From Ectocarpus siliculosus (lineage: Eukaryota; Sar; Phaeophyceae; Ectocarpales; Ectocarpaceae), in assembly GCA_000310025.1 (NCBI GenBank), contig FN648443.1, forward strand, positions 166,366 to 217,709: DNA of 51,344 nt, written 5' to 3'. Both the position numbers and the translations under genes were made by a program. Numbering within the stretch: the stretch's first letter is position 1; the number at the start of each line of letters is the position of its first letter. Of this stretch, positions 22,394-35,124 are shown piece by piece. Below the pieces are notes generated by a model. The model was not told the origin of the DNA, did no database searches, and worked only from the letters and a program-made list of their open reading frames with translations.

Positions 22394-25300
22394 TCAGCTA
22401 CGTCTTACCACCGCCGCCGATCCGACGCCTCCGTCCTCGCCCGTCACAGTGCTACCTCCGCGCCCTTCCACCGCCCCCCCTTCCCCCGAAAAGGTGTAGC
22501 CTCCCGCGCGCCTCACCAACTCCTCCGCTCCGGGCAAGAGCGCCTGTGCCGAAAACAACCCGCCCCCGAAGGAGGGGGTGGCGGCGGTTGCTTCGGCGAA
22601 GGCGCCCGTGCCTATGCTCGAAGAAGTTTTCCCCGCAGGCTTTGCTCCGGCGTCGCCATGTCTAGTCGCCGTCGCTGCCGCTGTCGTTGCTCGTGCCGTT
22701 GTTGCCGGCCGCAAAACGCGGTAGTGAAACTTGTGGCTGAATGATCCGTGGTCCGCTTTTTTATCACCAGCCAAAAGTGACGAACAACGCATCGCCGCGC
22801 CAGCATGGGGGGAAATGTGAGTCGCGGTGAAGCGGGCAGGGGACAGCGACAGGAACCAAAGACAAGTACATCAAAATCAAGTGGTCAAGCATGTCGGAGA
22901 GCGGAGCGGCGATGGTGCGAACAAGACTCCAGCAGGGACTCAGACTCACCCGTTCGAGCGAGAACCAGAGCGATCTTCTGCGATCTAGCGGGGCACATCG
23001 TGGAGCTCGTCATGCCTTTTCCGTCCGGTGATGCCCGAGAATCCGGCGTGCTTACGGTTGCCCCTTCTAGTGACGTCAACGTCAGACGGATCACAACCTC
23101 CGACGAGCTGCACAGAGTGGCGTTTACGACAATGACGAGATTTCTAAGCCGAATAAGCCGAAATGTACTGCTCCACGGTAATGATCCCACGCAGTGTTCT
23201 TTACATCGCACCCATGCTGACTATGTATGAACCACGAAGGACACAAACAACATTCTTGCTGTTGCGTCCGCCTGGCGAATGTAGGCCAACGCGACACAAG
23301 GCAGCACCGTTGATGCAATGTTGTGCACAACTATGTAGCGGCAAGGCGTAAACGAGGTATTTCCGCGAAGAACATGCGCCCTTGCCATGAAGATTCGAGG
23401 ATCTCATCATGGTTGCGTTCATACGGCGTTAATGAAGGAAAACACAGCTTTGTTTGGTGATTGCCTGGTGCAGCACTCTCCTTTTTCCGCAGAGACGGGC
23501 CCCGTGGCATGGTGCCTGGGCGCAGTATGGACGCGATTGAGCACTGTATTGCGACAACGTATCGTTTCTTCGTCTCGAAGACCAGCCTGTGTGATAGTCA
23601 GGGCGGACGTCCTGCGCCTGCCGCCGAAGCGATGAAATACATCTAACGAGCGTGCACAATGAACTTGTGCACGAGTCGCAACGGGTGCAAGGCATTCAGC
23701 TTGAAGGTGTCCCTGCTCTCCAACAAGATGACAAGGATTACAGCCCGCCAAATACCACACCTCATTCAAACAATGCCATCCCGACGGTAGTGCAGTAGGT
23801 TCTTTTCAAAAACAGTGGTCTGCGTCCTCCCACCGCCCATTTGGACCGAATCATGCCGCACATCCACCAGTTCATAAAAGCGGACACACACACACACACA
23901 CCTGACATTCACCAACAGAAAGAATACGGCGCTGCCTTCCATCGGGACCACCGACAGAGCAGCTCCCCCACCTAGTGCAAACGACTGAAGGGGGTTCCGC
24001 ACCGAAACGGCGTGACACCCTACGACCCCATCCGCCAAAATCTCCTGAAATAAGAGATGCAGCAGGCATCGAGCAAATAAGACCCCGATTGAGATCCCAA
24101 CCCGGCACGATGAAAGGAAGGGGCAACGGGAAAAACGATGAGAGCACCCCTACTTCGGGGTAGCGGGGCAAGGGGTACCGTGGTACATGCCATATGTCGT
24201 CCAAGTTGTTGCCAAGAGGTACACGAGACGTAGTGGTCAACCCAGCAGCAGAATTCAGGCCAACCTGCCGCGGGGCGTGCGTGACTTCCCTGCCGACACT
24301 GTGTCCTTCCAAATTTGCAAATTTGTCTCGAGGCCAAGCTCCGCCGAAGGGCCTGGTACGATCGATGCCACCCAGGGTTCCCCCTCACCTCCGACGATCG
24401 ACGGGATAAGGCCTGGTGTATAGAGGATCCCGCTCGAAAGTATCCGGGTGAGGCTGGTCGCTGCTCTCCTGGGACGATCTGCTCTCTCCCGCAATTCGGG
24501 GAGTTGCGACGTGGGAAACAATCCAAGAGAAGACAGCGAGGATAGTCTCCATTCCATGATCGTACCCGGAGATGGCGGCGCGGGCAGCCAATGGTTTCGC
24601 CGCGAGGTGGAGCGAGAGGTGATAAATGGGGTAGCCTCGTTCTTTCTCACCTGGCTTGGATTCATTGCTCTTCGACCCGTGCGATGCCGCAGTGTTCCGG
24701 CCGAGACCGGCGAGAAACGGCCGAGATATAGCGATGAATGGATTCGCTTCGCCTACCGCCTTGTTTCGGTTGGAACCGGTATTTAGCTGTGAGCACACGA
24801 TGCCAAAACTTCGAGTCTGTACTTCAACAGGACTGAAGCCTGGTGTTGGTTTGCGCTACCCTGGTTGGATGATCATTCTTGTGTGCCATCGGAAGCAACA
24901 GCCGAAGGGACACAAATAGAAATACCGGCCGTTTGTACAGTGTGTCACATCCACCCCCAACTTCACAGAGCGCAAAATCACTCCATCTCCGCCGTCCACG
25001 TGCATCCATGAATACCCATACCCTACCTGTACGGTACGAGCGCTGTACACCGTCACACGGAATCCCCAGAACCCCGTCGATTCTCCGAGGAGGGTGCTTG
25101 CCGCAGATAATTTTCGCCTTCCGGACGATATTTTGTCGCCATGTTCGACGCCCAGACACACCACCGATGCCGTGTACGCCTTGTCGCTCTCCAGAAACAC
25201 CTCGCACGACAGAGACCTTGTAGCAGTGGAGTAGAGCACAGGAGAGGGTGGGTTGAAGGTTCAGCGGGGGGGGAGCGGGGCTGCTACCAGGAAGAGCGCA

Positions 25301-28300
25301 GGGTCCTCGATCCTCGCTTGGCACGGGTTTTTCATAAGGCACCAAACCGTTTGTCGTGGCGTTCAACAGCCTTCCACATGATGTGCGTAATTGTGGCGCA
25401 CCCTGCAGCACATAGCCACAATGGACTAGGGTAGTAATCCCAAACAAAAACACAAGTGAAATTAAACCGGTGTGCAGCCTGGTCAATCGGTGGTACTCAG
25501 TCGAAACAGGGTGGATGCTATCACCTCGTCACCAATTTACTTCCCTCCTCGTCGGACGAAAATGCCAAAGAAGAAATTGCTGCGGTTGCGCCTTCTGAAC
25601 TTGAAAGCGGGAGTTCATCAGATGCTACTGTTGTATCATATCGGCGAACACCGTGAGTGCCAGGGACTTGCTCTTGTGCCTTGTATCATTTCAAAGTGCG
25701 CCCTTCTTCAGGCTGTGCATGACTACGGTTGCGTCATCTCTTTGCGTCGAAGAAGGTTGGGGAAGAGTGGGTATTCCTGTGGTCGAGGTCAGAGCGAGAT
25801 TCGTTGGGAAGATAGGCATATCAGCGACAGCAACGTCGACTACAATCACAATCACAACCACAATCACAACCACAACAAGACGACGACGATGTCTACCACA
25901 GCAAGAAGCTCGTTGTAGCGTTTTCCTAGACGTGCACGCACCCTTCTGGCCCTTGTTGTTCGAGGTTCGTCCATATCTATCACCTTTTCGCCCCGCCGAG
26001 AGATGAAGCCACCAGGACGCCATCGCCGTGGCCCGTATCTCCACGAGCAGAAAGAGAGGGGCTCATCTCTGTCACCAGCAGCCCCAAAGCCTTGTACCAG
26101 TAGCTGCCAACCAAGGGGGGGGGGGGCGCCAAAGAATGAACTACAAGACGGTTCATTGACCAATTGTTTGATTTCCTGGCGTCGCCGAAAACGTGCTTCA
26201 CTTTTCACGGACATCTCTATACTTGACTTCTTACTCTCCTTACCTTGCCTTTCTCTTACTCATAAATTTCTTGGGGAGATATATATAACTCGATAAGAGG
26301 AGAAAAAGAGACAACGGAGACTGCCGATACATGGTAGCTTGGGAACGGGTGGCCGCTGCACAAGCAAGGGGGTTCAGCACGGGGTCAAGCTCCGGCAACC
26401 CTGCTTTCTGGACTCCGGCTTTACCCACCATGAGCGACCAGGTTGCAAGGTTGTTGGTATCGCGTAATGACAACACATGGTCCCCCAACGGCAAAACTAA
26501 CATAGTTCGGAGATGACATCAACGGTAGAAGGTTTGAGGTTTGGGGTACGGAAAGGGATGAAGGGTTTAAGCGTTAGGATGAGAGGCCCCACGGTTGGGG
26601 CTAGCACTCACCCGTCCTTCCGCCCCCGCTTGGTTGGCTGGACCACGGTAATGTACGCCCAGGTTGTTGGTGTTGGTGTTGGTGTTGCTGCCACTGCTGT
26701 CGGCGACGTTGTTGTAGCTGTCGCTGCTGGATTTTTCCCCGCTGTTTGAGACGAGGTCTCCCCCTCTGTGTTTGCTGCCATCGGTGGCGGCGGAGGTCTG
26801 ACGCGAAAAGATCTGCAAGGCGCGGAGGGGCGGTGGGGCATCGTCCGGAGCTACATACCGAACGGCACTCTGTTGTACGCCACGTACAACACGGCCATAC
26901 TTTCATGAGTTAAAAAGCTTGTACATGTATGTATGATGGCTACAGGCAAGCACGATAAAAAGCGAAATATGGTTCACTGTGATTGCGCCGCGCTCACCGC
27001 TGTCATGTGTACCGGATAATATGAACGTTAACAGGTTGTACGAAGTTGAGAGATGCACTCAAGACGTGCCGTCGAAGGTAGGTGTCTGTCCCCTATGCCA
27101 TCACCTCAATGTCTTGACTTTAGACAGAACTATTACACAGGTGAACGGATAGGGTGCTTTTCAATTTATGACCTGACCTCATGTCTACTAGCTCCTTTGT
27201 ATAGTAGCGCTGGTTCACAAGCCGCTTTATCGGGAAACGACCTCACAGGAAACACCGCATACAGCAGACCCGTACAAGGAATAGTGGCGAAGTACAGAGC
27301 GTACCCGCTAGCACATAGAATTCGCAAACGTTGGCTCTGTGCAAAACCGAGAGGTACATCGGCTTGCATCTCGACTGGTGTGTAGAGTCAGCGGTACCCA
27401 CAGTACTTTCGATATAGATCAAAATCTGAGCGCTATTAATACCTGCAAGCCTTGGGGCTGGGAATGTTGTGGGTGGTGACAGAAGCGTGGGACCAGTCTC
27501 GCCTTGCCTTGCATACGTCCACTAGCTGAAATCGAGTCATGAAGTCTGATGGAGAACGGACACCAAACACGGCAAGAACGACCGGAGAATTTCAAGCATG
27601 GTACTTGTCGAGGCCGATTCATCATCACATCGCAGCGGTATCATCATCAGCATCATCAGCAGCAGCACCAGCAGCACCAGCAGCACCAGCAGCACCAGCA
27701 GCACCAGCTGCAGCCGCAGTTTTGCAGGGTGTGTACAACAACGGCAAAAACCAAGGTGGTGCATCACTATCTTCCCCCAGCATGCCGCATTTTGCGGACC
27801 CGTGTCGATACAAGTTTGTAATAACCGGGAATGCACATGCAAAAGCCAAGGGACATCGTATCAAGACTTGCCGTGCATCCACGTCAGCCGCGAGGGTAGG
27901 TGGGAAGAAAACCGAGCGCGGCATCCAAATCAATCAACAGCAACAAATTATTGATTATTGAGTCACCGGTGCCTTACCCTGCCACGTCATCCAAAAGGTG
28001 CCGTCATTCTTCTCGCTCCAGCCAAGCTCCGCTCGGACGCTGTCGCTCCACTTCTCCGACTTCTCGCCCCAATCCCCAATCCACTCGCGCTTCCCCCTTT
28101 TCAACAACAGCATGCACACAGATTTACCAACAACAGCTATTGGTCAGATGCACACCAAGTGGAGTATGGTACAGACCTGGCCTCTTTGTCCGTGTGTACG
28201 AAAACGGTCACAGGCGGCCGTGCACCAGACACGCCCCGGGCTCACCAAGGGTTGCGGACTCTCACAAGCCGAAGAGGTTGTCCAGACGCTTCGCCGTCTC

Positions 28301-31300
28301 TCCTCCGCCCCTGCTCGGCTGCCGCGGCGGCGCTGCCCAACCCGGCCCAGTCTCGAATGGACGGCTGCCTGGCTCCTCGAACTCCGGGGGGGAGTTCTCG
28401 CACCTTCGTAGACGTAAATGTCGATCGGAAGCAACATTCCAAACTAAACAAGCTTTCGATATGAGAGGTAGTATCGCACCTCGTGCCCTTGCCTGGCCCT
28501 TCCGCCCCAAGTGACACAGACACGTGCATACTCCCACACGCGTCCACCTCGACTGCTATATGTCCATGTCCATACCCGGGGAGCAACGCCGGCGGGCATC
28601 GAGACCAGACACGTTCATACCCCTACAGTCCCCCGACCCACAACTCCTCTGTTTTCAACACAAACGCCTTGCAAGGAATCGAGAGAACCCCCACCTATTG
28701 AATAGAACACACGGCTACCCTCCCCCTCTGTACTCGTGATCGAACAAAGGCTACCCCCCCCCCTCCCGCCGTGTACTCGAGATCCCAATACCGCTAGAAT
28801 CCGCTTCGCCCGTGGACTGTTGATACCTCTAGGACAGAGTAGGCGTGCGTTGAGACCAGCCCCACGTCACGGAGCCCCCTATGGCACGAGCAAATTTGGC
28901 AGGGGCAGCGGCACCAACCAGCGGCGGGGCAGCAAAGGGAGTAAGATGGCAGCATCAAGCACGAAAAATAAAGAGGTAGGTACACATTTGCACTCAAGCT
29001 GACGCTTCGGAACTGGGCGCCTCACGGAGCAGCGGGGAGTTTAGGCCGGACGCGTGGGCGCGATAGTCCGACGCGTCCGGCCCTTGTAAACTCTATGAGC
29101 AATGCTATTGGGAACGTTTCAAGACACGGCATCACCCACGCCTACAATAGGAACCCATGGTGGGAGTACGACCCACCTGGTGGGGTCCCATGCAGTAGCA
29201 CAGCCCATTGGAAAGCCTGCCTGGTTGAAGCTCAGTAGCTGGGCCCAGTTGCCCTCCGAATCGTCGTTGTCTGATCGCCGGCAATCCGGAAGAAAGTCCC
29301 AGGAATCCGCATAGTGGTATCGTATGACAAATGGCAGCAGGATGAGCAGTACAGTAAAAGGGGCAGCGGTAGCAGCAGTAGCAGCAAAGCAAACCACAGG
29401 TAACCAGCCGCACCGTTGAACAGGCCAAAAGAGCAAGGCAACAACGCCGTTCGTGGGAAAACAAAAAAGCAGGCACAGAACGAGCGGCAAACAGAGAATG
29501 CGCTGTCGTGGAGAGGAAAGGTACGTTTCTTGGGTCGCGGACTCCGTGTAAAGCAAGTGGCGAGATAGAAGTGCTGGGGTGAACGTAGGTGGCGGTGGGA
29601 ATACGAGCAACCAAAGTAAGGTTCGTAAGAAACAGCCTGCGTTCGCTCCCAGATAAGGTCGTTCGCCGCGACGGTAGGAATTATCTTCGGTGCTGAGAGC
29701 GCCAGTGAAGGAACAGCGGAAATTTTATGCGACATTTCGGAAGAATTATCCCAAAAAAGTGTTCCAAAATCGAACTCATTATGGTGTATTGTGCTTACTA
29801 CCGCCTTTCATATGTTGACGTGATATATCTCTAGGAGCTTTGTGGTTGCAAACAATGAGGGCGGGGAAAAACAGACACAATCGTAAATTATGTTGAGAAG
29901 AAAGTTGGCCCTGCGGACTACGAAAGCCACGTTCAAAGGTACCCCTATGAACACTGCCCTCCAGGGGTGCCCGTCCAGCTCTCGGAGAGCAGCGATGCCC
30001 TAGAGAAGCATCATCGCACGACCAACCGGATGTCAGAGCAGTTTCAACGCACAACGAACAAGAACCACATCAACAATAACAATAATATTCAAGAGCAGGC
30101 AACGGTAGCGTGTGGGGACAAAAATCGACGCAGGGCGCAGAGAAAATAGCCATCGTCGCATTGAAACTTATGAGACCCAAACTTAGCTCAGCCTCGACCG
30201 AGTCGCACTGCAGAGACGATGTATCAAACGCCTGAGACCGTACAAGCGCACCCTTACCGAGCATGACGGTCTCCGTTGGTGCCCCCGTCAGGGCTTCGAA
30301 CGCATCGCACACGTGCCCCCCAGATATTGCATCGTAGGATCCGTGCTGCTTGGCAAACGCCTGCAAAATTAACCAGAACGGCCGCATGAGGAATTTCGGG
30401 TTCCAGCACGTGTAGCCTTCGCGAACGCTACAAGCTAGAGAATTTGGCAAGGTGGAAACTACGGACACCAGGCCAACACACACTCGAAAAGAGAGAGATG
30501 CCTTTCTCATTTGGCATATTTATGTGGGACGAGAACACGTACACACATGCACGCCAAGGACTATCCGGGTGGTGTGGTGTGTCGCCTCGCCTGAGGCGCC
30601 CGCCTTCATTTTTTACGGCGAGCAGGGTTCGGCAATTCCTTCTGAGAATACCCACGCCTATGTGTTTCCCACGCCTATCCTGCGAACGCTTTCACTCCTG
30701 TGAGATTTGAACACGCCGCCTAGAGAGTCAGAACGTTTCGGCGCGACATATTGAACCACCGTGGGGGACAGGCAAGGGTGATGCAGTCGCGGAAAAAGAT
30801 TAAGGGTAAAATCTCCATCCGAACCTTTTCCACGATGCAAGGCCAAATCTGGTTGTTGAAGGCTTTGGCGAAGGCGGGCAAGTGGTCCAGACCTTTCTCC
30901 TTCCCCTTGAGGCGGGCGGGATCCTTGCACGGCAACCAGCTGTCCACGACAACGCTGTACGCGGCACACGACCGCAATAACACGGCAGCAGAGACGCGTG
31001 AGGTTGTCGCCACTGTTGTTGCTGTCACTAACTGCACTTTCACAACAACACCCCCGCTTTGCTTCCTTCGCAGCGTGGGGCTTCTAGAGGATTGTTGTCA
31101 TCCGGCTCGTCCGCGACAACCAACACCACAGTCACCCTGCAGTGCGGGGGAGGGGTACTCATAGTCGTGCATGCCGTGGTCGAGTCTTTCGACCACTGAC
31201 CTCGCATCCCTACAAAGCCGGGATGGAGCCCGCCGGGTTCGCACCGGACCGGCTCTAACATCACCAAGCGCGAAGGGCCTTGAGGATTCTCAGCGAGTCG

Positions 31301-34300
31301 CATGGAGGATGCGGTGCATGCTGCTAAGGGTGTTCGGCATCTTGTGCTTACTTCCGTGCATACGGATGACAGTTGCGAATGAAGTAATGTATTTTCTGGT
31401 GCGTTCACTTCCAAAGACAGTTATAAGCACTGTGTAACTGCCTCGAGGGTGCTCGGCCAATTTACCACAACGTGGCGCGATCATCCCCTTCGCGCGGAGT
31501 GAGGGTTCTTGACCCCGCACAACATAATCTACTCGACCACAATTCTAGTTACCGCCAAAAAAGAACCAAACGCAAACAAAAAGCGGCAGCCCGGTTGCCG
31601 TGCTCACGAAGTGATCGGTTTGTATTACACGGTCATTGCCAAGCGACAAAAACCCAACTCCGATGGCAAACACCGGGGGGGGGGAGCGCGGGGAGGTGTA
31701 CTCAAAATCGTGCATGCCGTAGTCGTTAGACCATTCACCACGGGGGGGAAGAGCGGGGAGTGAGAAATATGAACAACCGGACCCAATGGCTCGCCTCTCT
31801 CACCAATCGTCCACGAACATGAAGGCGTGATCGTGCATCTTAACCAACCATCGAAAACCCCTTGTCAACGACAAACGAATCCCTCAGGTTCAATGCACGG
31901 AGAAAACCCTACTTTGGTCATACTGATTGCCAGTCAGTGGACCCCAAACCGGGACGTCATCCCAACGCTTTTTTTCTCTACGTTTGGGCCACAATAAACG
32001 AAGCAGGGCACCCATATGGCAATCGTCAGCCCCTCAAGGGAGAAACGAGTGAACATATATTCCAACTGCCGGCTGAGCAGCAAGATATTCCCGGCCTCGC
32101 CGCACCTTTCCCAGCGCCCGTCCTTGAAGAGGTTCACCTCGAAGCACCCCAACTCGTCAGCCAGAGGACCATTGCTGCCCACCACCCGTCCGATCAGGTC
32201 GGCGCGTTCCGAGACTACCGCGAGTCCAGCCAGGAACCAGCAGTCTCCCACAGCCCCCTTGGGAAGAAACCAAAGGCCGAGCGGTCGGTCGTGCAACAAA
32301 AACGCGAGCAATGTGAGTGGGAATCTTCCTTGAGACCAGAATCGCTTGGCAACTACAACAATTGGGTGATGAGCAGATGGCAGGTATCGGAGCAACGGGC
32401 CCCCGTCAATGAACTCGTCGACAGAGTGGAAAACGGAAAGAAATGCCACCAGTAGTGCTTGATGGTCGTGGGAAGGGTACTACGCAGAGGACGGGGGACA
32501 TTTACTACACAGGGATTTTTCGCGTGTGGGTGCACTTGCTTTCCTCGCGTACGCTGCGAGCAGCAGGCAACGGGCTCTAGAAGTCGCTCCCGACGCCTCC
32601 TATGATGTGTGCCTTTGGCCGTCCTTGACCTACACCAATGAGTACGTCTCGTTGTCTCTGTTTTGTGGGTGCGTCTGGGTGGGAAGCTCAAAATATCGGC
32701 CCGCAGATGAAGACAGATCGCAGATTGGCTTGTGTCGCCCCCCTCGCGCGTGTGCTTCTGCAGCACGCAACAGGCTCTAAGAGTCGCACCCGACGCCTCC
32801 TATGACGTGTGCCTTTGGCTGCCCTTACCCTACAGCCGTCTTGTGTCCTGCTGTGCTGGTTGTCTTCTGTGTTGTCTATGCGTGCTGCTGCTGTGCTGCA
32901 TCTTTCAAGAGGCTTTCGGGGATTCTTCCCGCGAGTCTTACCCATCGCCCAATCAGGGGTTCCTGTCTTACGGAATATCTTGCATGGACGTGTGGTGTGG
33001 GAAACGGGTATCTACCCGGCTCTACCCTTCTAAAACAAAGATGGATTGTTGGAAGTTCTTCCGTGTCTAACAAAAAAAATACTTACGTAAGGGTCCGCTG
33101 CCCAAAGCAATGTGGACGAATAGCATCGGACCAAAGTGTGCTCTCGGTTTATCTTAAGCCTGAGACTATACCGCAAAAGGAATGTCGCTTCTAACCGACT
33201 GGTTCAAAAGCAAGACTGAAACACTGGATACTGTGGGAGGTATGCCAAAGTGGAAACAGCAAAAACAACGGGCTCATACCTATGCAGATAGCCTGCGTAA
33301 ATAAGTCATCTACCTGCATGACGTGTTCAGGCTTGAAACTTCCCCCAACGCCTTCCGCCCCCCTTGGCGCTGCGCTCGACAGCTTGAATCTGGGCGGCGA
33401 AAACCGCCTCCATACCAGAGAAAGCGCCTGCCGCGTGTGAGGCGCATCATCCGCCCACCTGAATGTATCGTGTTGATAATCAATGTTACTGACGTTTTTC
33501 GGGTAACCGCCTGTGACTTGCATCGCAAGACACATCATGTTTAAGGTTAGTCCTCCTTCGCGACGGCAACGCGCAAGAACCGAATTTCCTTCTCTGCCAA
33601 TGGTTAAATTGGAAACGAACCGACATGCCGTGGTGAAGTCAAGAGAGACAAGACGTTTCTGAACCACGCCAACGAAGAACAAGGCTCGTAAGAACAACGT
33701 ACGCACGGCAATCAAAAACGAAAAACACACAACAGCAGCGCGCACTCGTTCTCCGTGAGCCTCACCTAAAAAAGTCACACTTGCGGGTGATGCACCCGTA
33801 GAAGAGCCTTCCCTGGTTTACGCCCGCCTTGTTGACCGTGATGACCCGGGCACTCGTGCCACACTTGCAACGGGCATGACCCTAACAGCAGCCAATCGTG
33901 CGCCCGGCCACCGACGCCCAGAGACGAGTGTAGTGCATTGGGGAGGGCACGAGAGGTAGTGACCATCTGCCGTTTAGCATGGCTAGCATTGACACTTGTG
34001 TTCACACAGTCGCTCACCCACTGTTCTTTGTTATCCCTCGCTCTTATACGTAGTCCCCATGACGCATCCCACGCCCTCTCCCTGCGCCTCTCTCTCCTCA
34101 TCCCCAACCCACTCCATCTCCCCAATCGATTATTCCGGAGGAGGGACTGTAATTTTCTGTTTGGGTGATTTTTTTTCCGATGAATGGAACACACAATGTT
34201 TTTCGTCACAAGAAACTTAGATGTGCCAACACAGGGAGGGCAAGACCGGTCCACCACCTGCAGGTGAATGCATGGTCAGCAAGAACGTACCCCCCCGTGC

Positions 34301-35124
34301 TTGTCACCTCGGCAGTTTCCGTGCCGCCACCGTCTGTGCAATCCCGCGACGAAGCAGAGCAGCCTCTCCCAATCCGTCCGTCCAAACTAGAGGGCACAGG
34401 GAGAAAATCGCCATCCTCGTACTGTGCTCCTTGCCTATGTTCACGAGGGTAAGACCCGGAAGCTTTCAGAGCTTCACCACGGCTGTGTTGTACGAATTTA
34501 GTCCTCTTTTCTACTACTGTACTTGTACACAGTCGACAATAATAAGCAGGACTACACTTTCATGGAGAGAAGATTCGGCTCGTGTTGTATCAAGGGTTCG
34601 TTGCATGGTCTCGCGTATACAGCATAAGAGCCGGTTCAAGATTTCGTAGCAGAATTAAACTGCGGTTCGCACCTCTGGCAGCGCTCAGCAATCGCTTCCC
34701 ACCCTGCGGAAGGAGCCGTGGTCGACTTTGGTACAGGAGCACCACGTATGCTATCGCATGGCTTTGCATGTATTTCCTCCGCCATGCCTGATGAGAAAGG
34801 CATTCCCACACTTGCGGTGACACTGCTACTGCTGGTGTCCGACAACAAGGGCCTTGCGTGTTCAAACTTCAAGAGCTGCTGTTGTTGCTTCTCTCCTGCC
34901 ATCGCCGCACGCTGTCGTTTCAAGGAGCGGGGGTCGCTGTTGTCATCGCCGCAAGAGGCGCTCTTACAGTAGTCACTGTGGCTCCGGCTTGCCGCAGTAT
35001 CATTCTTTGGGGAGTCCAAGAAGTGGTTGACTGCTCGGGTCAAATCGTAACCGGCGCGCTCAAGGTAAGAAGCCGCGACCAAGGGATTCAAGCAGCCGGT
35101 GGCTGCAGCGAACAGCTCCTCCAT
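22394..35124 (-). CDS. Calpain-type cysteine protease with UBA-like domain and GRF zinc finger
   Basis: Exons (- strand): 35124-34673, 34434-34308, 33881-33766, 33458-33314, 32257-32106, 30954-30825, 30360-30258, 29270-29177, 28878-28827, 28310-28246, 28096-27978, 27545-27443, 26812-26612, 25216-25027, 23984-23902, 22736-22394. Introns are GT-AG and phases fit throughout, giving 824 residues. Domains: UBA-like 1-39 (TGC...LERAGYDL...VNHFL); basic KRQR at 69-72; calpain N-terminal YEDGDFLPVPSSL (about 155-167); GRF zinc finger about 198-233 (C198, C200, C223, C228, NQGRLFY, CDFFRW); calpain core from 278 with C286 (GAVGDCWFLA), H451 (STHAYSVLE) and N477 (RVRNPW); C-terminal calpain beta-sandwich 554-730; Ser/Gly-rich tail. 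All three catalytic residues are present. The start is uncertain: the frame stays open upstream to about 35184 but only with a TTG, so an upstream exon may exist. The first base of exon 10 is also uncertain. Confidence 0.88.
23883..23901 (-). repeat. (TG)n microsatellite forming a splice donor
   Basis: In calpain mRNA sense the exon ending at 23902 is followed directly by a GTGTGTGTGTG run, so the donor GT is the first unit of a dinucleotide repeat. Length changes in the run would leave the donor intact but could offer alternative donors two bases apart. Confidence 0.6.
25838..25880 (+). repeat. CAATCACAAC-type microsatellite
   Basis: Short imperfect repeats of CACAAT/CACAAC lie in the calpain intron between the exons ending at 26612 and starting at 25216. 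There is no coding role. Confidence 0.7.
27645..27718 (+). repeat. CAGCAGCAC / ATCATCAGC microsatellite in calpain intron
   Basis: A triplet and nonamer repeat lies within the intron between calpain exons 27978 and 27545. It opens reading frames on both strands (poly-Ala, poly-Ser, poly-Gln/His) that are not genes. Confidence 0.75.
29038..29092. repeat. Strong imperfect palindrome (hairpin) in calpain intron
   Basis: Arms GGCCGGACGCGT (29044-29055) and ACGCGTCCGGCC (29071-29082) are perfectly complementary over 12 bases around a 15-base loop. The pairing resumes further out, with AGTTTA (29038-29043) and TAAACT (29087-29092) after a four-base bulge. It lies in the intron between calpain exons 29270-29177 and 28878-28827. 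It could form a very stable RNA stem or a DNA cruciform, and its function is unknown. Confidence 0.75.
31151..31734 (+). repeat. Dispersed repeat family A, copy 3 with second head
   Basis: Forward copy (31151-31684) inside the calpain intron between exons 32257-32106 and 30954-30825, antisense to the gene. It has a single tail unit, then a G run, then a new head fragment at about 31696-31734 (GGTGTACTCAAAATCGTGCATGCCGTAGTCGTTAGACCATT). This makes a head-to-tail partial dimer joined by poly-G. Confidence 0.85.
32560..32835 (+). repeat. Local direct duplication in calpain intron
   Basis: Two ~70-base segments, about 32564-32635 and 32764-32835, share CCCGACGCCTCCTATGA(T/C)GTGTGCCTTTGGC and flanks on both sides. 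They are 200 bases apart in the intron between exons 33458-33314 and 32257-32106. Both keep an open frame on the + strand (APDASYDVCLW), but no splice-consistent gene is evident there. Confidence 0.7.
33766..33881 (-). other. GRF zinc finger exon of the calpain gene
   Basis: This exon and the first codons of the next encode a complete GRF-type finger: CKCG, then about twenty residues to NQGRLFYGC, then CDFF completed by RW from 33458. The pattern CxC...GRxFYxC...CxFFxW is the family consensus known from APE2, NEIL3 and TOP3A, where it binds single-stranded DNA. It falls between the calpain N-terminal segment (YEDGDF...) and the catalytic start (VMQ-GAVGDCW), that is, inserted within a calpain protein rather than appended to it. 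Confidence 0.85.

What the first reader, a model, noticed from the sequence alone, without database searches (positions are those of the whole stretch)
22394..35124. UBA-like domain, GRF zinc finger and active calpain core in one protein: candidate DNA/ubiquitin-targeted protease
Seen: a phase-consistent 16-exon gene whose product has a UBA-like helix bundle, a basic KRQR patch, a GRF finger with all four cysteines, a calpain core with Cys, His and Asn in their family motifs, and a calpain beta-sandwich. Known: GRF fingers bind single-stranded DNA in APE2 and NEIL3, and an N-terminal UBA-like domain occurs in the crosslink-repair enzyme TDP2. Inference: the protease may be guided to DNA lesions or ubiquitinated chromatin proteins, by analogy with SPRTN and Wss1. 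I do not recall calpains with this architecture, but I cannot search to confirm it is new.
Basis: partly seen in the sequence, partly recalled or inferred. Interest (0 to 1): 0.82.

Follow-up and report, generated by a model that had tools for sequence, protein, structure and literature searches.

The report
Brown-algal UBA–GRF-finger calpain protease gene
This stretch of what looks like a brown-algal genome holds a real gene for a calpain protease that carries a ubiquitin-binding-type domain and a DNA-binding-type zinc finger, but the same three-part design has already been described in green algae, so it is a new example of a known kind of enzyme whose job remains to be tested.

Summary
The gene is real. 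On the minus strand (35124 to about 22394) I modelled 17 exons with 16 GT-AG introns, encoding about 859 residues. Pfam finds UBA_4 (E=4.7e-7), GRF zinc finger (1.4e-12) and Peptidase_C2 (1.6e-63), each over its curated cut-off. The zinc cysteines, the NxGRxFY and FFxW motifs and the Cys-His-Asn triad are present. Of 9 loci with calpain-like exons found in this genome, it alone has a GRF match beside it.

Two points of the finding fall. No calpain beta-sandwich (Calpain_III) was detected. [quoted passage not shown]

Best mechanism, inferred: a protease steered to ubiquitinated, probably nucleic-acid-associated, substrates, working like animal CAPN15, shown to be ubiquitin-directed (PMC12805371). 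The crosslink-repair reading remains possible without specific evidence.

Side result: nine such loci in an apparent brown alga disagree with the single-CysPc picture of a 2026 paper and agree with the 2012 survey.

Verdict: new member of a known kind.

The parts
34673..35124 (-). Exon 1: start codon, UBA_4 domain (residues 5-39), linker with KRQR basic patch
   Evidence: Pfam UBA_4 E=4.7e-7, 29.9 bits over cut-off 21.8; start codon and GAG|GTGCGA donor
34291..34333 (-). Exon 2, uncertain 43-base linker exon that bridges phase 2 to phase 0
   Evidence: splice model only, no homology
33766..33881 (-). Exon 3: GRF finger, CKC, NQGRLFYGC and the fourth Cys
   Evidence: Pfam Zn_ribbon_GRF, exon alone E=1.7e-7; joined 1.4e-12
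33280..33458 (-). Exon 4: end of GRF finger (FFRW across the splice) and linker into the protease
   Evidence: the junction restores CDFFRW; domain match 170-208
32829..32962 (-). Exon 5, uncertain: linker just before the catalytic Cys; upstream end not determined
   Evidence: AGG|GTAAGG donor at 32829; 5.2-5.7 bits better than three other fillers in Pfam, but no gain over leaving it out in the long model (213.3 against 214.9 bits)
32106..32257 (-). Exon 6: PC1 with catalytic Cys (codon 32242-32240, GDCWFL)
   Evidence: Peptidase_C2, PDB calpains
30825..30954 (-). Exon 7: PC1, VVVDSWLP...
   Evidence: Peptidase_C2, PDB calpains
30258..30360 (-). Exon 8: PC1, AFAKQHGSYDAISGG...
   Evidence: Peptidase_C2
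29177..29270 (-). Exon 9: NWAQLLSFNQAGFPMGC, between the Cys and His parts of the core
   Evidence: splice model and Peptidase_C2 continuity
28827..28878 (-). Exon 10: PC2 with catalytic His (codon 28847-28845, THAYSVLE)
28246..28403 (-). Exon 11: about 33-residue insert and catalytic Asn (codon 28253-28251, RNPWG)
27978..28096 (-). Exon 12: PC2, KREWIGDW...DGTFWMTW
   Evidence: Peptidase_C2
27443..27545 (-). Exon 13: end of PC2, DFMTRFQLVDVCKARRDW
25027..25216 (-). Exon 14: C-terminal domain, first part; no known family
   Evidence: splice model; no Pfam match over cut-off
23902..24044 (-). Exon 15: C-terminal domain, middle part
   Evidence: splice model, acceptor 6.6 and donor 5.5 on my own score; one of several chains listed
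22950..23143 (-). Exon 16: C-terminal domain, last ordered part
   Evidence: splice model, donor CGG|GTGAGT
22394..22611 (-). Exon 17, uncertain Gly-rich tail to the stop codon; one of six candidate last exons
   Evidence: splice model only

Best explanation
A member of the published Zf_GRF-CysPc calpain subfamily, in its UBA_4-GRF-CysPc form, in an apparent brown alga. Shown by sequence: the three domains, their order, and intact zinc-ligand and catalytic residues. Inferred: the UBA_4 domain docks on ubiquitin, the GRF finger docks on single-stranded nucleic acid or a nucleic-acid-bound complex, and the calpain core then makes a limited cut in the protein held there. Restraint would come from needing two or more weak contacts at once, with or without calcium. 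It would thus work like CAPN15, with UBA in place of NZF fingers and GRF as a second address label. Probability about 0.95 for the identity and about 0.45 for ubiquitin-directed, nucleic-acid-assisted cleavage.
For: Pfam UBA_4, GRF and C2 each over cut-off. PDB: calpain-1 best for the core, E=2.7e-34; NEIL3 best for the finger, E=4.2e-11. Triad present, with 93 identities in 244 aligned positions to a calpain-1 chain. The GRF motif set (CxC, NxGRxFY, two F and a W after the last Cys) is described in PMC9369019 and is present. The same architecture is printed for two green algae. CAPN15 cleaves K48-ubiquitin-tagged but not untagged E-cadherin tail, and its protease-inactive and ubiquitin-binding-deficient forms fail to rescue (abstract).
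Against: No transcript or protein data. UBA_4 domains need not bind ubiquitin, and GRF domains may bind RNA or only fold. Recalled calcium ligands are mixed: E302 and D331 equivalents kept, D309 to E, E185 to Q, M329 to K, E333 to T, so calcium control is uncertain. The PC1 start was not located, and the protein joins exons 4 and 6 directly, which is out of phase; the phase-consistent model needs the weak exon 5. The one other UBA_4 match found in this genome sits in a different kind of protein.
Confidence: 0.45

Rival explanations
1. DNA-protein crosslink or chromatin protease: the GRF finger binds single-stranded DNA at lesions, the UBA domain binds ubiquitinated adducts, and the calpain core digests them, as the first reader proposed by analogy with SPRTN and Wss1.
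For: PDB matches of the finger are NEIL3 and, weakly, an AP lyase entry; the KRQR patch could be a nuclear signal (inference).
Against: GRF fingers also occur outside lesion-repair enzymes, e.g. in ZCCHC4 and Top3. A four-term search (calpain, DNA-protein crosslink, protease, SPRTN) returned 4 papers; judged from titles and abstract starts only, none was about a calpain in that role. Six other long frames of the window were scanned and gave no Pfam match; the rest of the window was not annotated.
Confidence: 0.12
2. Ubiquitin-directed protease in which the GRF finger is structural or binds protein or RNA, with no link to DNA.
For: CAPN15 precedent; GRF in the rRNA methyltransferase ZCCHC4.
Against: The finger keeps a Lys and a Gly-Arg-x-Phe that align with the AP lyase entry, and the Lys also with NEIL3, which favours nucleic-acid contact but not DNA over RNA.
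Confidence: 0.25
3. The C-terminal domain is a SOL-homologous (SOH) domain, which would make GRF calpains true relatives of SOL/CAPN15 calpains rather than analogues.
For: Resemblance in the same order to a human CAPN15 fragment typed from recall.
Against: 71 of 2000 (BLOSUM45) and 80 of 2000 (BLOSUM62) shuffles reach the observed score, so it is marginal at best, and the letters were recalled. Zhao 2012 found SOL only in metazoans and inferred independent origins for Zn and Zf_GRF calpains.
Confidence: 0.15
4. Two adjacent genes, UBA-GRF and calpain, wrongly joined.
For: Exon 4's frame stays open only to 33194, and the link from exon 4 to exon 6 (exon 5) is the weakest part of the model.
Against: Same strand and order; identical architecture in other eukaryotes; of the calpain loci found, the only one with a GRF match beside it.
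Confidence: 0.04

Closest known systems
UBA_4~zf-GRF~peptidase C2 proteins of Ostreococcus tauri (Q012Z6) and Micromonas pusilla (C1MTG3), Rawlings 2015, PMC4631099 (passages)
   Same: Same three domains in the same order; no Calpain_III listed for them, and the paper says Calpain_III was lost in calpains with zinc fingers
Zf_GRF-CysPc calpains of SAR, Hacrobia and Plantae, Zhao 2012, PMC3563603 (section 8 and passages)
   Same: GRF finger with CysPc; SAR listed as a holder
   Different: The parts seen do not mention a UBA on the Zf_GRF type; UBA-CysPc is given separately for Emiliania
CAPN15 / SOL calpains
   Same: N-terminal zinc fingers with ubiquitin-binding function there, UBA_4 plus a zinc finger here; CysPc; a C-terminal domain that is not Calpain_III by sequence here
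   Different: NZF/RanBP fingers instead of UBA and GRF; homology of the C-terminal domain not established
GRF fingers of NEIL3 and APE2 (APE2 by name from the papers)
   Same: Zinc ligands and the NxGRxFY and FFxW motifs; E=4.2e-11 to NEIL3
   Different: Joined to a protease, not to a DNA enzyme; one finger instead of NEIL3's two
DEK1-like C2-TML-CysPc calpain of brown algae (PMC13413365, passages)
   Same: CysPc domain
   Different: That type is membrane-anchored with a non-canonical triad; this one has a canonical triad and no C2 domain found by Pfam (transmembrane segments not tested)

Membership tests
Calpain (peptidase C2, CysPc) | Peptidase_C2 profile match | tested here: met
   E=1.6e-63, profile 40-297 of 297
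Calpain (peptidase C2, CysPc) | Cys-His-Asn catalytic triad | tested here: met
   GDCW, THAY, RNPW aligned with a calpain-1 chain
Calpain (peptidase C2, CysPc) | Complete PC1 including the part before GDCW | tested here: inconclusive
   profile positions 1-39 or 1-44 not found; four fillers tried
CBSW-type calpain (CysPc-Calpain_III) | Calpain_III beta-sandwich after CysPc | tested here: not met
   no match; by sequence only, fold not tested
Zf_GRF-CysPc calpain | GRF finger N-terminal to CysPc in one protein | tested here: met
   and the phase-consistent model; single-transcript proof lacking
GRF zinc finger (PF06839) | Four Zn ligands (first two CxC), NxGRxFY, two F and one W after the last Cys | tested here: met
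   CKC..NQGRLFYGCITRKCDFFRW; definition from PMC9369019 section 12; Pfam 47.9 bits over 25.9
UBA_4 domain (PF14555) | Profile match over cut-off | tested here: met
   29.9 bits over 21.8
UBA_4 domain (PF14555) | Binds ubiquitin | not testable with these tools
   needs protein
SOL/CAPN15 calpain | N-terminal RanBP/NZF zinc fingers | tested here: not met
   Pfam finds GRF, not RanBP, in the modelled protein (E<=1, E<=0.1)
SOL/CAPN15 calpain | C-terminal SOH domain | tested here: inconclusive
   marginal, recalled reference letters
DNA-protein crosslink protease (SPRTN/Wss1-like function) | DNA-stimulated proteolysis of crosslinked protein | not testable with these tools
   biochemical

The most novel reading that the evidence does not exclude
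A two-address protease, ubiquitin through UBA_4 and single-stranded nucleic acid through GRF, that clears ubiquitinated proteins from DNA or RNA in algae and other protists: a calpain-based counterpart of SPRTN/Wss1, or an ancient sister of ubiquitin-directed CAPN15.
Probability: 0.12. Interest if true: 0.7.

Novelty: new member of a known kind. Interest (0 to 1): 0.3.

Why it matters
The architecture has been in print since 2012-2015, yet none of the passages I read reports a functional test of a GRF calpain, and in 2025 a ubiquitin-directed calpain was shown in animals. An intact-triad member in an apparent multicellular brown alga makes the idea testable there. It also adds to the 2012 evidence that brown algae hold several calpains, against the single-sequence picture in a 2026 paper.

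Tried and rejected
Calpain beta-sandwich: not found. SOH identity of the C-terminal domain: comparison with a recalled CAPN15 fragment gave about 2.2 standard deviations, 71 and 80 of 2000 shuffles reaching the score; not claimed. The region's best Pfam match was DUF3251 at E=0.016, below its cut-off, and its one PDB match was a stomatin homolog at E=1.1; neither is taken as real. Filling the PC1 start: four filler variants tried; the DGCR variant began the profile match at position 45 instead of 52-53, but in the long model it scored no better than leaving it out (213.3 against 214.9 bits). Relatives in IMG/VR viral contigs: none confirmed (5 pattern stretches). Another copy of the C-terminal domain in the genome: only the gene's own three exons among 5 scored candidates. 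Identification of the assembly by contig count in papers: no hit. The metagenome collection had no scans allotted. Genome contigs (prokaryotes) was not scanned.
Full report
Observation. The window lies at C68:166366-217709 of a 189,456,909-base, 492-contig assembly. The minus strand from 35124 to 22394 carries a phase-consistent chain of exons. I built it from seeds chosen by eye plus splice-site and codon scores of my own making and checked it: 17 exons, 16 GT-AG introns, 859 residues, no internal stop. Weak points are exon 2 (43 bases, no homology), exon 5 just before the catalytic Cys, exon 15 (one of several chains listed) and exon 17 (Gly-rich tail, one of six candidates).

Domains. hmmscan of the joined protein gives Peptidase_C2 E=1.6e-63 (profile 40-297 of 297), Zn_ribbon_GRF 1.4e-12 and UBA_4 4.7e-7, each over Pfam's curated cut-off. 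That query joined exon 4 directly to exon 6, which is out of phase, and ended with exon 14. The phase-consistent model with exons 5 and 15-17 added gives 5.3e-63, 1.9e-12 and 6.8e-7. Against the PDB the core matches calpain-1 first (E=2.7e-34), and the finger matches NEIL3 (4.2e-11, 7.9e-11) and weakly an AP lyase entry (0.096). The splice between exons 3 and 4 restores CDFFRW. The motif set given in PMC9369019 section 12 for GRF fingers (CxC, NxGRxFY, two Phe and a Trp after the last Cys) is met: CKC...NQGRLFYGCITRKCDFFRW. The triad residues are at codons 32242-32240 (Cys), 28847-28845 (His) and 28253-28251 (Asn). 93 of 244 aligned positions are identical to the calpain-1 chain (rat by recall). 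Calcium ligands named from recall are mixed: E302 and D331 equivalents kept, D309 to E, E185 to Q, E333 to T, M329 to K.

What is not there. No Calpain_III domain was found: none in the genome exon by exon (where the tool warns that its controls were silent too), none in the joined protein, none in the C-terminal 177 residues, and no calpain among PDB hits to that region at E<=10. This fits the statement in PMC4631099 that Calpain_III was lost in calpains with zinc fingers. The tests are by sequence; the fold was not tested. The start of PC1 was not located.

Genome context. GRF gives 7 matches on 5 contigs. Peptidase_C2 gives 17 exon matches, which I group into 9 loci; only the window locus has a GRF match beside it. 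Matches come exon by exon and the tool calls its counts lower bounds. At the 8 other loci I read stretches around the 14 exon matches outside the window. In three loci an active-site position looks changed (Cys to Gln on C19 at 2.5 Mb; Cys to Ser on C33; His to Tyr and Asn to Gly on C24). The C1 locus keeps all three residues in the exons seen, and the others were seen only in part; some matched stretches hold stops, so not every locus need be a working gene. The C-terminal domain gave no other match. The UBA region has one weak second match (44% over 59 residues), in a 600-residue open frame with UBA_4 over cut-off and a SET match below it.

Organism. Not given. 150 of 150 scored EsV_1_7_cys matches are over cut-off, out of 880 candidates. 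A review says this family has expanded in brown algae, and also that it is patchily spread over eukaryotes and some viruses (PMC7457493, one passage). 87 light-harvesting matches point to a photosynthetic host. A brown alga is therefore likely, not proven.

Prior art. PMC4631099 (passages) lists Ostreococcus tauri Q012Z6 and Micromonas pusilla C1MTG3 as UBA 4 ~ zf GRF ~ pC2: this very order. [quoted passage not shown] PMC13413365 (passages) mentions Zf_GRF-CysPc in a red alga, green algae, phytoplankton and Plasmodium, and in a table for Phytophthora. For brown algae it finds one DEK1-like CysPc sequence per genome with a non-canonical triad, while saying that this does not prove there is only one. 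The nine loci here, in an apparent brown alga, disagree with that single-sequence picture and agree with the 2012 survey. In the passages read I did not see a statement that brown algae hold a Zf_GRF calpain; that absence rests and on passages, not on whole papers or supplements.

Mechanism. The closest tested parallel I found is CAPN15: it binds ubiquitinated proteins through its N-terminal zinc-finger region and cleaves K48-ubiquitin-tagged but not untagged E-cadherin tail, enhanced by calcium (abstract, passages and one section). By analogy I infer that here UBA_4 supplies the ubiquitin address and GRF a second one, probably single-stranded nucleic acid, since Lys and Arg positions align with the AP lyase entry and the Lys with NEIL3. 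Every binding and cleavage step is inference. A DNA-protein crosslink role is one special case without specific support; a four-term literature search listed 4 papers and, from titles and abstract starts only, none was about a calpain in that role.

C-terminal domain. I suspected homology to the SOH domain of CAPN15 and compared it with a fragment typed from recall. 71 (BLOSUM45) and 80 (BLOSUM62) of 2000 shuffles reach the score. That is a lead only, and it runs against Zhao 2012, which places SOL in metazoans.

Verdict. Real gene, correctly read in its main features; architecture already published; function untested here. New member of a known kind, interest 0.3.

Noticed in passing
G000:C21:441236-441415 (L009:1406-3208 frame): A UBA_4 domain over cut-off lies in a 600-residue open frame with a sub-cut-off SET-domain match: a possible UBA-SET protein, the one other match to this gene's UBA region found in the genome.
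   Followed up: partly
L007 and L008 (G000:C19 near 161.8 kb and 182.3 kb): Two calpain-like exons about 20 kb apart with nearly the same sequence, a probable duplication; the sequence read around them carries stops.
   Followed up: no
L001, L002, L005: Calpain paralogues with apparently changed active-site residues (Cys to Gln; His to Tyr and Asn to Gly; Cys to Ser).
   Followed up: partly
window 32560-32830: The intron before the catalytic-Cys exon holds two similar stretches (around CCAAAGGCACAC...GGAGGCGTCGGG), an intronic repeat (seen by eye).
   Followed up: no
G000:C485:51665-54210: Three GRF-finger matches within 2.6 kb, probably one multi-finger protein.
   Followed up: no
G000:C92, C232, C488: Clusters of light-harvesting protein genes with identical scores, e.g. 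ten on C92.
   Followed up: no
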